From Streptococcus oralis (GTDB taxonomy: Bacteria; Bacillota; Bacilli; Lactobacillales; Streptococcaceae), in assembly GCF_016127915.1 (NCBI RefSeq), contig NZ_CP066059.1, forward strand, positions 744,001-808,000: DNA of 64,000 bases, read 5' to 3'. Each line of letters starts with the position of its first letter. Positions within the stretch are counted from its first letter, which is position 1. The notes under the pieces were generated by a model that worked only from the letters and a program-made list of their open reading frames with translations, did not search any database and was not told the origin of the DNA. This document shows positions 45,001 to 48,464 of the stretch, piece by piece. The translations under genes were made by a program, and so were the position numbers.

Positions 45001-48000
45001 TGGAAGTACTTAGTCATGACGTCATGAGCAAATAAGTTGGTTACATAGCCATTGTAGTCGCTTCTTCCTTGCCAACCTTCAAAGTCTTTCATGCTGTAGC
45101 CACCTAGAAGTGGGTAGTTGGCTGCACCACCGTAACTTCTATAGTCCCCAACCCAAGAATCTTTTTGGTGGTTACGGATAAAGCGCGTGATGGCGCTGTT
45201 GATACCTTTATTAGTGTAGCCACCATAGGTCAAGTCAGCTGCCCAGTGTTGGAAGGTAGAGTCGTATTCACCACCATGACCCCACTCAATCGCAAAACGC
45301 CAGCCTTGTTTGTTGATTTCTTTAGCAAGAACGTGGGTAGCCCAGGCACCGTTATCACCTGATTGACCATTGCCCCATACGTCCACATAGATAAAGTCGA
45401 GACCATCACCAAGTTTTTTCTTCAAGTCTTCCCAGCGAGCCAAGCGTCCATGTGCTAGGTCATAAGCAGCATCAATGTTGATACCTTGGTCTAGCCAGTT
45501 CCAGCCGTAGCTGTAGCTGCCATCTGGATTCTTACGAAGAATATTTTCATTAAAGTATTTAGACTCAGGATAAGTCTCAGAAGCGTTAACGTGGATGCCA
45601 AGATGAGCTCCATATTTCTTCGCTTTTTCGATCAAGGTCTTGAAGTCTTCGACACCACCAATACGTTTACCAATATCAGCATAGTTCAAGTGTCCAGAGT
45701 CATGACCTTCACTACCATAACCTTTAAGGAGAACACCTTGCCCAAGACCATCTGTGTGGAGATTGATTTTCTTGATACCATCCAAGGTCATAAGGAATGG
45801 GTTTTGTGCTTGAGAACCAAAGTTCATCGCGATACGGTAAGCAGTGATATCCTTGACTTTTTCCCAACCTTGAGGGTTGTTCATGATGCTACGATAAGCA
45901 ATGGCACCATCTTGCCAATCGACTTTGTTGTCTGCATTGGCATCTTCGGTGATAACAACCTTGGCACTTGGAAGTTCCTTGGTGTATTCTGGGAAGACAA
46001 TGCCCTTATAAGCCTTTTCCCATTGCCATTCAGAGCTGTGAATTCCGACATAGTTGGCATTTCCAACTGTTTCTTTATAGGCTGTCAAACGAGTCCAGTC
46101 ATTCGAACCACCACCGTAGCTGTTTTGAGAGTTACTCCAAACACCTGCAGCAAGCTTATCTGTAGAAACAAATCCATACATGTAACCCTTAGCCAAATCC
46201 TTCATTGGATTGGTTACATCGATATGATCATCTCCGCTGACATGGGTATTGTTTGACATGGTTGCCCCATCAAACTTAGCACCAGCTTGATCACTAGAAA
46301 CAGAGACTAAAGCATTGCCAAGGAAACTAATCGTAGAAAGCAATTTTCTTTCGTCATCAATCTTTTGACCTGGAGTGACTTGATTGTGGTTGACAATCTT
46401 GGTCACATCAAAGTGCAATTGATTGTCCACGACTTGCAAGCGTACTGTCATTTCCGCATTGATTAAGTGAGCATCATCGCGAAGCTTCATCACGTACTCT
46501 GCTGTTGTCTCATTGATTTTCTTATAAGTGACTTCAGGAGTGATTCGGTGGTTATTGATAAAGACTTGGTTGAACTGTTGCACCTGTCCTGGCAAAGTAT
46601 GTCCATTCAAGGTGTATTCCTTGACACGAGGGAAGGCTTGGTCAATTACCGCTTTGAGAACCTTAGACTGGATCGTATCATAAGTCACCTTGCTATCGTC
46701 AACGGCAGGACCTGTTTCTTTCTGGGCAGGAGTATCATCCGCTTTTACACCTTCTTGATTGTCTGTTTTAACGCTGACAACTGTACGCTCATTGCCATAG
46801 GAACCAGCTTTTAGGACGATTTTCTTCTCATTTTTGAGAGTTTCATTAACAGCTGCTGGCAAAGTGACCGTATCAAAGAGTTTCTCATCATTATTCGTTG
46901 CATTGAGTTGTCCATCTGACTTGAGAGTGATAGAAAGACGGTTTACAGAACCTGGTTCTGGTGCTGCAACACGACCGCCCTGATACCATGTGCTGTTACC
47001 TGGAGTTTTGTATTCCCAGAACCAGCCACCTTGGTCATATCCAACAAAAACATTGTTCTTGGTATCTTTAAATTTCAAGAAGACACCAAAGCGTGATTTG
47101 CCCTTTTCAGAATCATCTTTGAAGTTTAAATCAACTGTCGCATTTCCATTAGCATCGACAGTCAATCCTTGTTTTTCAAACAAGGCTGGTTTGCCATCAT
47201 TGTCATTTTGGGCCGTTGAAGACAATTGATTGTAGCGAACACCCTTTTCTTCACGAATAGTGACTGTTCCTTGTTGCTCTTTATTCGCTACTGTTTGCCA
47301 TTCAGGAGTCACTGTCTTAGGTGTTTCAGGTTTAGCAGCTGCAGGTTTATCCTCTTTTGGTTTTTCTTCAGCCGGTTTTTCTTTCTCTTCCAAGTCTGCT
47401 GGTTTCACACTTGAAATTCCCTGTATGTGGTCTTGGATCCATTTTAGTTGAGCTGGTGAGAAGAGAATTCCTCCGCTCCGTTTTCCAACTACACCATTTT
47501 GGTGTACACCGACCAGTTTTCCTTCTGTATCAAAGATACCACCGCCACTAGCACCCGGTTTTCCTCCTTGGTAACCAATCCCTTGGACACCTTCTCCGTA
47601 TGGTTCCGCAAAATCAACTGTAGTATTGACAATCGGATTCAATTTCCCTTCTGGATAACCAAAGACATGGAGCTTATCTCCGATTTTCTTAACTACTGGC
47701 TTTTTAGTTACTTCAACAGGCGTATTTTCTAGAACTGTACGCAATCTCACTAGGGCCAAATCATTTTTGAAGCCCTTTAGGTAGCCTTCACGATCCCAAT
47801 GAATGATATCTTTCTTGCTAAACTTGACATCTGGCAATCCTGGATAAGAGATACTATAGATATCTCCATCCCCTTGGTCATTATCCACAACCTTACGGAT
47901 ATTGCCGTCTTGGCTGTCCTTGATAAAGTTATGAGAAACCGTCAAAACAAGGTCTTTAGCAACGACAATACCGCTACCTTCTCCTGATGGCGTCTTGATC

Positions 48001-48464
48001 TTAACAGTCGCGCCGTAGTTTAATTCCCCATTGGCAGTCTTAGCCACATCTTCTGGAACAAGCTTCCCAGTATCTTGGGCCAATTGATCCTTGTCAACTT
48101 CGCGCCCATTATCTTCAGCTTTCTCCAACTTATCTTCTAATTCTTTTGGCAGATTGCTTGGCTTTTCAGACTTTTCTTTTTCTTGAGCTAACAATTCCTC
48201 TTCAGTCTTAGGTCCATCAGTTATTTCATCAGAACCAGGATTCTGAGCGGCAGCTTCCTTGTCAAAATCGTGCCCCTCATCACTAGCCTTCTTATCCAAA
48301 TCAGCCAATTCACTCGGCAAATTATCTGTTGAACCAACCCTTGCTTGATCAGCCAATACTGGGCTAGCTGCGAAGAAAGTCGCTCCAATCATCACCGAAG
48401 CTACTCCAAGCGTAAACTTACGAATACTGAACTTACAGCGTTTTTCAAAAAATCGTTTATCCAT
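42099..48464 (-). CDS. Cell-wall-anchored GH101 endo-alpha-GalNAcase with a serine protease domain
   Basis: A 2121-residue enzyme that should release core-1 Gal-beta-1,3-GalNAc from Ser/Thr of mucin-type glycoproteins. It has a YSIRK-type signal (KFSIRKFTLGVASVMIG; cleavage near residue 39). A trypsin/V8-like protease domain (about 145-350) follows, with His178 (LTVSHNF), Asp235 (NDLALVR) and Ser306 (GKPGASGGG). A Pro/Lys/Glu linker leads to the GH101 region (about 385-1400). Nucleophile Asp1028 (FIYVDVWGNG) and acid/base Glu1060 (AIEWGHGGE) are 32 residues apart, like Asp764/Glu796 of the pneumococcal enzyme. Galactose-binding-like domains, an F5/8-type domain (about 1760-1900), four 17-residue repeats and LPATG at 2088 complete it. 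As I recall the pneumococcal homologue (about 1767 residues), it lacks the protease segment. Confidence 0.93.
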   Translation of the reverse strand: MDKRFFEKRCKFSIRKFTLGVASVMIGATFFAASPVLADQARVGSTDNLPSELADLDKKASDEGHDFDKEAAAQNPGSDEITDGPKTEEELLAQEKEKSEKPSNLPKELEDKLEKAEDNGREVDKDQLAQDTGKLVPEDVAKTANGELNYGATVKIKTPSGEGSGIVVAKDLVLTVSHNFIKDSQDGNIRKVVDNDQGDGDIYSISYPGLPDVKFSKKDIIHWDREGYLKGFKNDLALVRLRTVLENTPVEVTKKPVVKKIGDKLHVFGYPEGKLNPIVNTTVDFAEPYGEGVQGIGYQGGKPGASGGGIFDTEGKLVGVHQNGVVGKRSGGILFSPAQLKWIQDHIQGISSVKPADLEEKEKPAEEKPKEDKPAAAKPETPKTVTPEWQTVANKEQQGTVTIREEKGVRYNQLSSTAQNDNDGKPALFEKQGLTVDANGNATVDLNFKDDSEKGKSRFGVFLKFKDTKNNVFVGYDQGGWFWEYKTPGNSTWYQGGRVAAPEPGSVNRLSITLKSDGQLNATNNDEKLFDTVTLPAAVNETLKNEKKIVLKAGSYGNERTVVSVKTDNQEGVKADDTPAQKETGPAVDDSKVTYDTIQSKVLKAVIDQAFPRVKEYTLNGHTLPGQVQQFNQVFINNHRITPEVTYKKINETTAEYVMKLRDDAHLINAEMTVRLQVVDNQLHFDVTKIVNHNQVTPGQKIDDERKLLSTISFLGNALVSVSSDQAGAKFDGATMSNNTHVSGDDHIDVTNPMKDLAKGYMYGFVSTDKLAAGVWSNSQNSYGGGSNDWTRLTAYKETVGNANYVGIHSSEWQWEKAYKGIVFPEYTKELPSAKVVITEDANADNKVDWQDGAIAYRSIMNNPQGWEKVKDITAYRIAMNFGSQAQNPFLMTLDGIKKINLHTDGLGQGVLLKGYGSEGHDSGHLNYADIGKRIGGVEDFKTLIEKAKKYGAHLGIHVNASETYPESKYFNENILRKNPDGSYSYGWNWLDQGINIDAAYDLAHGRLARWEDLKKKLGDGLDFIYVDVWGNGQSGDNGAWATHVLAKEINKQGWRFAIEWGHGGEYDSTFQHWAADLTYGGYTNKGINSAITRFIRNHQKDSWVGDYRSYGGAANYPLLGGYSMKDFEGWQGRSDYNGYVTNLFAHDVMTKYFQHFTVSKWENGTPVTMSDNGSTYKWTPEMKVELVDAAGNKVVVTRKSNDVNNPQYRERTVTLNGRVIQDGSAYLTPWNWDANGKKLPTDKEKMYYFNTQAGATTWTLPSDWANSKVYLYKLTDQGKTEEQELTVTNGKITLDLLANQPYVLYRSKQTNPEMSWSEGMHIYDQGFNSGTLKHWTISGDASKAEIVKSQGANEMLRIQGNKSKVSLTQKLTGLKPNTKYAVYVGVDNRSNAKASITVNTGEKEVTTYTNKSLALNYIKAYAHNNRRENATVNDTSYFQNMYAFFTTGSDVSNVTLTLSREAGDEATYFDEIRTFENNSSMYGDKHDTGQGTFKQDFENVAQGIFPFVVGGVEGVEDNRTHLSEKHDPYTQRGWNGKKVDDVIEGNWSLKTNGLVSRRNLVYQTIPQNFRFEAGKTYRVTFEYEAGSDNTYAFVVGKGEFQSGRRGTQASNLEMHELPNTWTDSKKAKKVTFLVTGAETGDTWVGIYSTGNASNTRGDSGGNANFRGYNDFMMDNLHIEEITLTGKMLTENALKNYLPTVAMTNYTKESMDALKEAVFNLSQADDDISVEEARAEIAKIEALKNALVQKKTALVAEDFESLDAPSQPGEGLENAFDGNVSSLWHTSWSGGDVGKPATMVLKEPTEITGLRYVPRASDSNGNLRDVKLVVTDESGKEHTFTVTDWPNNNKPKDIDFGKTIKAKKIVLTGTKTYGDGGDKYQSAAELIFTRPQVAETPLDMSGYEAALAKAQKLTDKDNQEEVASVQASMKYATDNHLLTERMVAYFADYLNQLKDSATKPNAPTSSKGEEQPPVLDVPEFKGGVNATETAVHEVPEFKGGVNAVEALVHELPEYKGGANAVLAAANEVPEFKGGVNAVQALVNEKPAYTGVLATAGDQAAPTVEKPEYPLTPSPVADAKTLEDKEEKLPATGEHGSEAALFLASVSIALSAAVLATKRKED
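42333..42536 (-). repeat. Four 51-base (17-residue) tandem repeats
   Basis: Four consecutive 17-codon units of the type VPEFKGGVNAVEALVHE lie between the catalytic part and the LPATG anchor of the GH101 protein. The same motif ends NanA-type and other streptococcal wall proteins, so it is a wall-spanning spacer rather than a catalytic element. Confidence 0.85.

What the first reader, a model, noticed from the sequence alone, without database searches (positions are those of the whole stretch)
47411..48035. A trypsin/V8-like serine protease domain built into a GH101 endo-alpha-N-acetylgalactosaminidase
Residues about 145-350 hold a chymotrypsin-fold protease with an apparently intact triad: His178, Asp235 and Ser306 in a GxSGG context. 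The GH101 Asp1028/Glu1060 pair lies downstream. As I remember the pneumococcal enzyme, its sequence runs straight from the leader (TEEELLALEKE) into the Lys/Pro linker (KPAEEKPKED), so the protease looks like an insertion between conserved flanks. One wall-anchored protein that both removes core-1 O-glycans and cuts protein would suit mucin attack, since deglycosylation exposes backbone to the protease. The domain might instead process the enzyme itself or neighbouring surface proteins.
Basis: partly seen in the sequence, partly recalled or inferred. Interest (0 to 1): 0.78.

Follow-up and report, generated by a model that had tools for sequence, protein, structure and literature searches.

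The report
Protease module on streptococcal O-glycan-cutting enzyme
A wall-anchored enzyme that strips sugars from mucus proteins in a mouth streptococcus also carries a trypsin-like protease module, a combination already noted in print; related modules sit on other enzymes that attack mucosal glycoproteins, and the pneumococcus has lost it from its copy.

The parts
42099..48464 (-). GH101 endo-alpha-N-acetylgalactosaminidase gene with protease module, 2121 aa
   Evidence: NCBIfam NF040533 endo_SpGH101 aligns 1-1957 to 1-1961 of 1962
48372..48446 (-). YSIRK signal peptide motif, residues 7-31
   Evidence: Pfam PF04650 E 5.5e-12
48063..48344 (-). Variable, charged N-terminal stretch, residues 41-134; possible pro-segment (inference)
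   Evidence: pLDDT under 50 for residues 101-106 and 108-133; median dN/dS 0.140 against 0.068 for the protease; column variability 118-134
47412..48062 (-). Chymotrypsin-fold, S1B/V8-like serine protease module, residues 135-351
   Evidence: strong conservation starts at Leu135 (39 of 39)
47931..47933 (-). Catalytic His178
   Evidence: 108 of 108 distinct module sequences
47760..47762 (-). Catalytic Asp235
   Evidence: 108 of 108
47547..47549 (-). Catalytic Ser306, in GASGGG
   Evidence: 108 of 108; Gly304 also 108 of 108
47502..47504 (-). His321, at the chymotrypsin-213 position (numbering recalled)
   Evidence: 108 of 108
47301..47411 (-). Glu/Lys/Pro-rich linker, residues 352-388
   Evidence: sequence; median dN/dS 0.192 for 351-388
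47388..48182 (-). Block (about residues 95-359) missing from the pneumococcal enzyme, bounded by EKEK / A-rich near-identical direct repeats
   Evidence: alignment; DNA flanks; PDB 3ecq
46755..47300 (-). GH101_N domain, residues 389-570
   Evidence: Pfam PF17995 E 3.1e-74
45915..46673 (-). Galactose mutarotase-like domain, residues 598-850
   Evidence: Pfam PF18080 E 6.1e-86
45042..45914 (-). GH101 catalytic domain, residues 851-1141, with Asp1028 (45381-45383) and Glu1060 (45285-45287)
   Evidence: Pfam PF12905 E 8.8e-122; residues checked
44622..45026 (-). GH101 C-terminal beta-sandwich, residues 1147-1281
   Evidence: Pfam PF17451
44055..44498 (-). GH101 domain 5, residues 1323-1470
   Evidence: Pfam PF21466
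43461..44054 (-). Galactose-binding-like domain, residues 1471-1668
   Evidence: Pfam PF17974
42810..43163 (-). F5/8 type C domain, residues 1768-1885
   Evidence: Pfam PF00754
42402..42503 (-). SIALI-17 repeat, best stretch, residues 1988-2021
   Evidence: NCBIfam NF043031 E 4.9e-37, 3 stretches
42102..42218 (-). LPXTG wall anchor, residues 2083-2121
   Evidence: Pfam PF00746

Best explanation
This is a wall-anchored O-glycanase (GH101) with a genuine S1B/V8-like serine protease module at its outer, N-terminal end. Shown by computation: the module has a chymotrypsin-type protease fold, keeps the active-site residues, and is under purifying selection. Shown: related modules sit on other surface enzymes (GH29, M26, GH33) and on a tandem protease protein. 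Inferred: it works as a helper protease. The glycosidase removes core-1 O-glycans and the tethered protease cuts the exposed mucosal polypeptide. It is probably kept latent until its N-terminal arm is processed or a partner protein is met. The pneumococcus lost the module from its GH101, most likely by deletion.
Against: No activity has been shown. The purified Gemella domain was inactive on chromogenic peptides and an E. coli peptide library, its S1 pocket is blocked (PMC11970125), and it did not contribute to IgA1 cleavage (PMC9637739 passages). S1 residues near Ser306 differ between carriers and from V8, so specificity cannot be read off. Conservation in the GH101 form starts at residue 135, which in the structural alignment meets residue 10 of 1wcz and 1p3c (residue 134 meets residue 12 of 1qy6), so the part that would form a V8-like activated N-terminus is variable here. 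Many GH101 proteins do without the module (29 of 94 genomes). The link to O-glycoproteins is a pattern in a handful of carrier types, not a test.
Confidence: 0.5

Rival explanations
1. The protease processes its own polypeptide or neighbouring wall proteins, for example cutting the Glu/Lys-rich linkers around it to trim the protein or activate itself.
For: The module is flanked by Glu-rich linkers and its solved relatives include glutamyl endopeptidases. The GH29 form has the stretch N-R-A-I-I-N-G-G before its domain in all five GH29-type representatives printed and both printed, and the first tandem copy has a like stretch (VIQGG) right after its signal peptide, as expected for processing.
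Against: The linkers are the least constrained parts measured (dN/dS 0.176-0.192), and I saw no conserved cut site in them. Cutting in the linker after the protease would separate it from the anchored glycosidase.
Confidence: 0.25
2. The module is a protease fold that has taken on a binding or spacer role and no longer cuts.
For: The Gemella domain showed no activity and its authors leave this open (PMC11970125).
Against: Five active-site positions kept in 108 of 108 sequences over five carrier classes, although the modules share as little as 22% identity with this one.
Confidence: 0.15
3. It is an insertion gained recently by this lineage, absent from the ancestral mitis-group enzyme.
For: The pneumococcal enzyme lacks it with clean flanks. 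More distant streptococcal GH101 proteins lack it.
Against: Pneumococcus is nested among protease-bearing alleles (SH-aLRT 99), and the block is flanked by near-identical direct repeats. An older gain is likely, but not a recent one here.
Confidence: 0.04

Closest known systems
SpGH101 of commensal streptococci with extra peptidase S1B domain (PMC12211801, Fig. 2 legend)
   Same: Same architecture: S1B domain added to SpGH101 in commensal mitis-group strains; ZmpA likewise.
   Different: That paper reports it from commensal study strains as a structural note, in the passages I read; no function, history or other carriers in those passages.
Trypsin-like domain of Gemella haemolysans M26 IgA1 protease (GhTrp, PDB 9ect, 7uvk)
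   Different: Partner is a metalloprotease, not a glycosidase; about 35% identity; no activity found for it.
Characterised pneumococcal SpGH101 (PDB 3ecq, 5a55-5a5a)
   Same: GH101 core and catalytic Asp/Glu; the pneumococcal-type protein of G157 is 92% identical over 1766 aligned residues.
   Different: Lacks the protease block.
V8 / glutamyl endopeptidases (1qy6, 1wcz, 1p3c)
   Same: Fold and triad.
   Different: Free secreted enzymes with a propeptide (recalled); 17-19% identity; S1 region differs.

Membership tests
GH101 endo-alpha-N-acetylgalactosaminidase | GH101 catalytic domain and its ordered accessory domains | tested here: met
   PF17995, PF18080, PF12905, PF17451, PF21466, PF17974 in order, all over cut-off
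GH101 endo-alpha-N-acetylgalactosaminidase | Catalytic Asp/Glu pair (roles recalled) | tested here: met
   Asp1028 and Glu1060 in the same context as residues 764 and 796 of the pneumococcal-type protein
GH101 endo-alpha-N-acetylgalactosaminidase | Release of core-1 O-glycans | not testable with these tools
   needs an assay
S1B / V8-like serine protease (Trypsin_2) | Chymotrypsin fold | tested here: met
   predicted model
S1B / V8-like serine protease (Trypsin_2) | His-Asp-Ser triad with oxyanion-hole glycine | tested here: met
   His178, Asp235, Ser306, Gly304; 108 of 108 relatives
S1B / V8-like serine protease (Trypsin_2) | Glu-specific S1 pocket (His213 with Ser/Thr190, rule recalled) | tested here: inconclusive
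   His213 equivalent kept; the residues before Ser306 align with a gap and differ
S1B / V8-like serine protease (Trypsin_2) | Mature N-terminus made by processing | tested here: inconclusive
   residue 135 meets residue 10 of 1wcz and 1p3c; upstream stretch variable
S1B / V8-like serine protease (Trypsin_2) | Proteolytic activity | not testable with these tools
   needs an assay; the Gemella relative was inactive
Module shared with M26 IgA1 protease (GhTrp) | Sequence and fold relation | tested here: met

The most novel reading that the evidence does not exclude
Mitis-group commensals use one family of latent surface proteases as an interchangeable add-on to enzymes that attack mucosal O-glycoproteins (O-glycanase, fucosidase, sialidase, IgA1 protease). 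Sugar removal and backbone cutting then happen in a single anchored protein, and the loss of the add-on from the O-glycanase is one of the differences that separate the pneumococcus from its commensal kin.
Probability: 0.3. Interest if true: 0.72.

Novelty: new member of a known kind. Interest (0 to 1): 0.5.

Why it matters
The GH101 enzyme studied as the model, from pneumococcus, is the exception that lost a domain which most sampled mitis-group relatives keep, so work on it misses a module of the natural protein. If the module is active, glycan removal and protein cutting are coupled in one molecule, which bears on how commensals feed on salivary mucin. It also gives the unexplained Gemella IgA1 protease domain a family with several carrier types in which to look for a shared substrate or activation step.

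Tried and rejected
A chance match or misread frame: rejected. Recent insertion in this lineage: rejected in favour of loss in pneumococcus. The same segment in all GH101 proteins: rejected (65 of 94). A V8-like activated N-terminus exactly at Leu135: weakened by the structural alignment, which puts Leu135 at residue 10 of 1wcz and 1p3c. A giant sialidase-O-glycanase-fucosidase protein in S. cristatus DD08 (6585-codon frame, L230): not accepted as a single protein, because runs of N lie between the GH101 and fucosidase parts and near the end; the sialidase-GH101 part itself lies before the gap, and the frames of L093 and L094 have no gap. A plain Foldseek pdb search could not be run because the machine was busy; pdb_via was used instead. 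Genomes G028 and G086 had weak matches (6.4e-4 and 1.3e-4) that I did not resolve: the regions I took (L152, L228, L229) were guesses. In one search the flanks could be read in 5 of the 9 loci asked. Literature: the ten searches brought up no paper on the GH29 or GH33 fusions in what I saw of their listings, and only PMC12211801 for GH101 with ZmpA; the library lacks most subscription papers. Passages only were seen of PMC11861894, PMC9637739, PMC8592123, PMC10900908, PMC7846122, PMC12687362 and PMC12211801; a term search of PMC6722419 gave nothing.
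Full report
WHAT IS THERE. The finding lies in one open frame on the minus strand, 42099-48464, 2121 codons. It has a YSIRK signal peptide, a charged N-terminal stretch, a Trypsin_2 domain, the full GH101 domain series, an F5/8 domain, SIALI-17 repeats and an LPXTG anchor. NCBIfam's endo_SpGH101 model (1962 positions) aligns to residues 1-1957 from end to end, protease included, so NCBI's reference model already spans the segment, under a glycosidase name. 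The nearest named rows by GH101 core are S. oralis. The window is part of a 1.9-Mb genome.

WHERE ELSE. Of 284 genomes of the window's genus, 94 have GH101. In 65 of those 94 the protease lies 2.1-2.5 kb upstream on the same strand (from the lists). These 65 include three that are not one clean frame: G122 (stops inside), G130 (different frames) and G209 (assembly gap). Among 80 named GH101 loci (the best 80 of 183 confirmed), 38 carry a full-length in-frame module, all of them Streptococcus (38 of 63 Streptococcus-titled loci). Two more were not counted as full length: L065, whose frame is interrupted inside the module, and L097, which has an assembly gap. The module is not confined to GH101. 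In the window's own genome it also sits on a 1920-codon surface protein with an alpha-L-fucosidase (GH29) domain; a third match there is weak (E 1.1e-6, 403-codon frame, not followed up). Among the 17 stretches fetched I found it with GH29 (4), M26 metalloprotease (3), GH33 sialidase (2, each with two copies in tandem), and as tandem copies with no partner enzyme found (3; SIALI-17 repeats shown for the one scanned). The rest were three GH101 loci, the pneumococcal GH101 control and one empty guess. In a sample of 395 genomes of the order, matches at E up to 1e-12 occurred in 28: 24 of the same genus (own included) and 4 outside it, the latter only at 1.3e-18 to 9.2e-17. The Gemella relative is known from the PDB.

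IS IT CATALYTIC. Across 108 distinct module sequences of at least 170 residues (shorter matches were dropped before the count), the His, Asp, Ser, oxyanion Gly and His213 equivalents are present in 108 of 108: 45 GH101, 25 GH29, 16 and 15 of the two tandem types, 4 M26, and 3 that my motif rule left unclassed. The classes were assigned by motif. The sequences were picked by a profile, so a badly decayed copy could be missed. Median pairwise dN/dS for 39 GH101 genes was 0.068 for the protease, 0.068 for GH101_N, 0.019 for the catalytic domain, 0.140 for the stretch before the protease and 0.192 for the linker after it. Pairs near saturation or with too little synonymous change were dropped (642 of 741 pairs used for the protease), and median dS for the protease is 1.26, so the values are rough. 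Against this stand the published facts that the Gemella domain showed no activity on the substrates tried and has its S1 pocket blocked by loop 2 (PMC11970125, parts 1 and 2 of 3 read), and that it did not contribute to IgA1 cleavage (PMC9637739, passages). The authors propose a latent proenzyme opened by N-terminal cleavage, and leave a non-catalytic role open.

SIGNS OF LATENCY. In the GH29 form the stretch NRAIINGG precedes the domain in all five GH29-type representatives printed and both. In the first tandem copy a like stretch, VIQGG, follows directly after the signal peptide. That fits one needing a cut and the other getting its N-terminus from signal peptidase. This is inference. In the GH101 form strong conservation starts at Leu135 (39 of 39) after a variable stretch. 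The structural alignment puts Leu135 at residue 10 of 1wcz and 1p3c (and residue 134 at residue 12 of 1qy6), so an activated N-terminus of V8 type would fall in the variable part. The evidence for V8-style activation is therefore mixed here.

HISTORY. The pneumococcal-type genome G157 (unnamed) has a 1767-aa GH101 that matches PDB 3ecq without offset change over 1528 residues and aligns to the window protein at 92% over 1766 residues except for one missing block, about residues 95-359. In a tree of 82 GH101 cores built without the protease, G157 is nested at SH-aLRT 99 among protease-bearing alleles, most titled S. oralis. Presence or absence needs 4 changes on that tree (L065 and L097 counted as having it). 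A-rich near-repeats bound the block: 11 of 12 bases alike in L074 and 10 of 12 in the window; the perfect GAAAAAGAAAAA occurs on the left in L074 and on the right in L072, in no single locus on both sides (5 of 9 loci readable). Of the 120 proteins listed as closest to the pneumococcal N-terminal region (568 found), the first 19 (1613-1791 aa, standing for 10,269 member sequences by my sum) lack PF13365. The 8 with names are S. pneumoniae. The other 101 all carry it, among them named S. pseudopneumoniae and S. infantis. Members inside a 90% cluster were not checked one by one. In G157 the only module match was on its ZmpA, and its two GH29 frames are short (448 and 584 codons). The slot can hold other things: S. 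cristatus L092 has a GH33 sialidase between the leader and GH101_N by Pfam; L096 (S. sinensis) prints a nearly identical N-terminus, and L093-L095 have the same offset. S. pacificus L098 has a doubled GH101_N.

MODULE TREE. On a tree of 108 module sequences the carrier classes need 5 changes where 4 is the least possible. GH29 (support 81), M26 (98) and the first tandem copy (100) each form one side of a branch; GH101 and the second tandem copy need two changes each. Each partner thus seems to have received its module once or very few times and kept it. The program warned of long branches meeting (L097 is one long row), so the deeper order is unsure.

MECHANISM. Most likely a real, possibly latent, surface protease that helps its partner attack mucosal O-glycoproteins: GH101 removes core-1 glycans and the tethered protease cuts the bared backbone (confidence 0.5). 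Shown by computation: fold, triad, selection, partners, loss. Inferred: activity, substrate, cooperation, latency. Self- or neighbour-processing (0.25) and a non-catalytic role (0.15) remain.

NOVELTY. The fusion itself is in print: the legend of Fig. [quoted passage not shown] The module in M26 proteases is also published (PMC9637739, PMC11970125). Not met in what I saw of the searches: the GH29 and GH33 carriers, the active-site conservation across carriers, and the placement as a pneumococcal loss. I therefore call it a new member of a known kind, with the GH101 member already noted.

Noticed in passing
window 33814-41988, minus strand: Next gene downstream encodes a 2724-aa YSIRK surface protein with GH20 and GH84 (NAGidase) catalytic domains plus five F5/8 domain stretches; no protease domain was listed in it.
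   Followed up: partly
L141:2743-8502 (G000:C1:1413742-1419501): The window's genome has a second copy of the module, on a 1920-codon surface GH29 fucosidase with an NRAIINGG stretch before the domain.
   Followed up: yes
L092-L096: S. cristatus and S. sinensis GH101 proteins seem to carry a GH33 sialidase in the slot where the window protein has the protease (Pfam run on L092 only; L096 N-terminus printed; L093-L095 by the same offset). The frames of L093 and L094 are gap-free and end in what looks like a wall anchor.
   Followed up: partly
L157, L153: GH33 sialidase surface proteins with two tandem trypsin-like modules of different subtype at the N-terminus.
   Followed up: partly
L098: Streptococcus pacificus GH101 has two GH101_N domain stretches and no protease; S. 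suis proteins printed look similar.
   Followed up: no
L148 (G157): The pneumococcal-type genome's ZmpA carries the trypsin-like module, although one paper describes it as extra relative to the pneumococcal ZmpA it compared with, so pneumococcal strains may differ.
   Followed up: no
L147/L065 and L156: One S. oralis subsp. tigurinus draft has the frame interrupted inside the module, and one genome (G130) has protease and GH101 in different frames. Described only.
   Followed up: no
L116: A contig labelled Carnobacterium maltaromaticum has a GH101 core very close to a Streptococcus one (L111), so the label or the assembly may be mixed.
   Followed up: no
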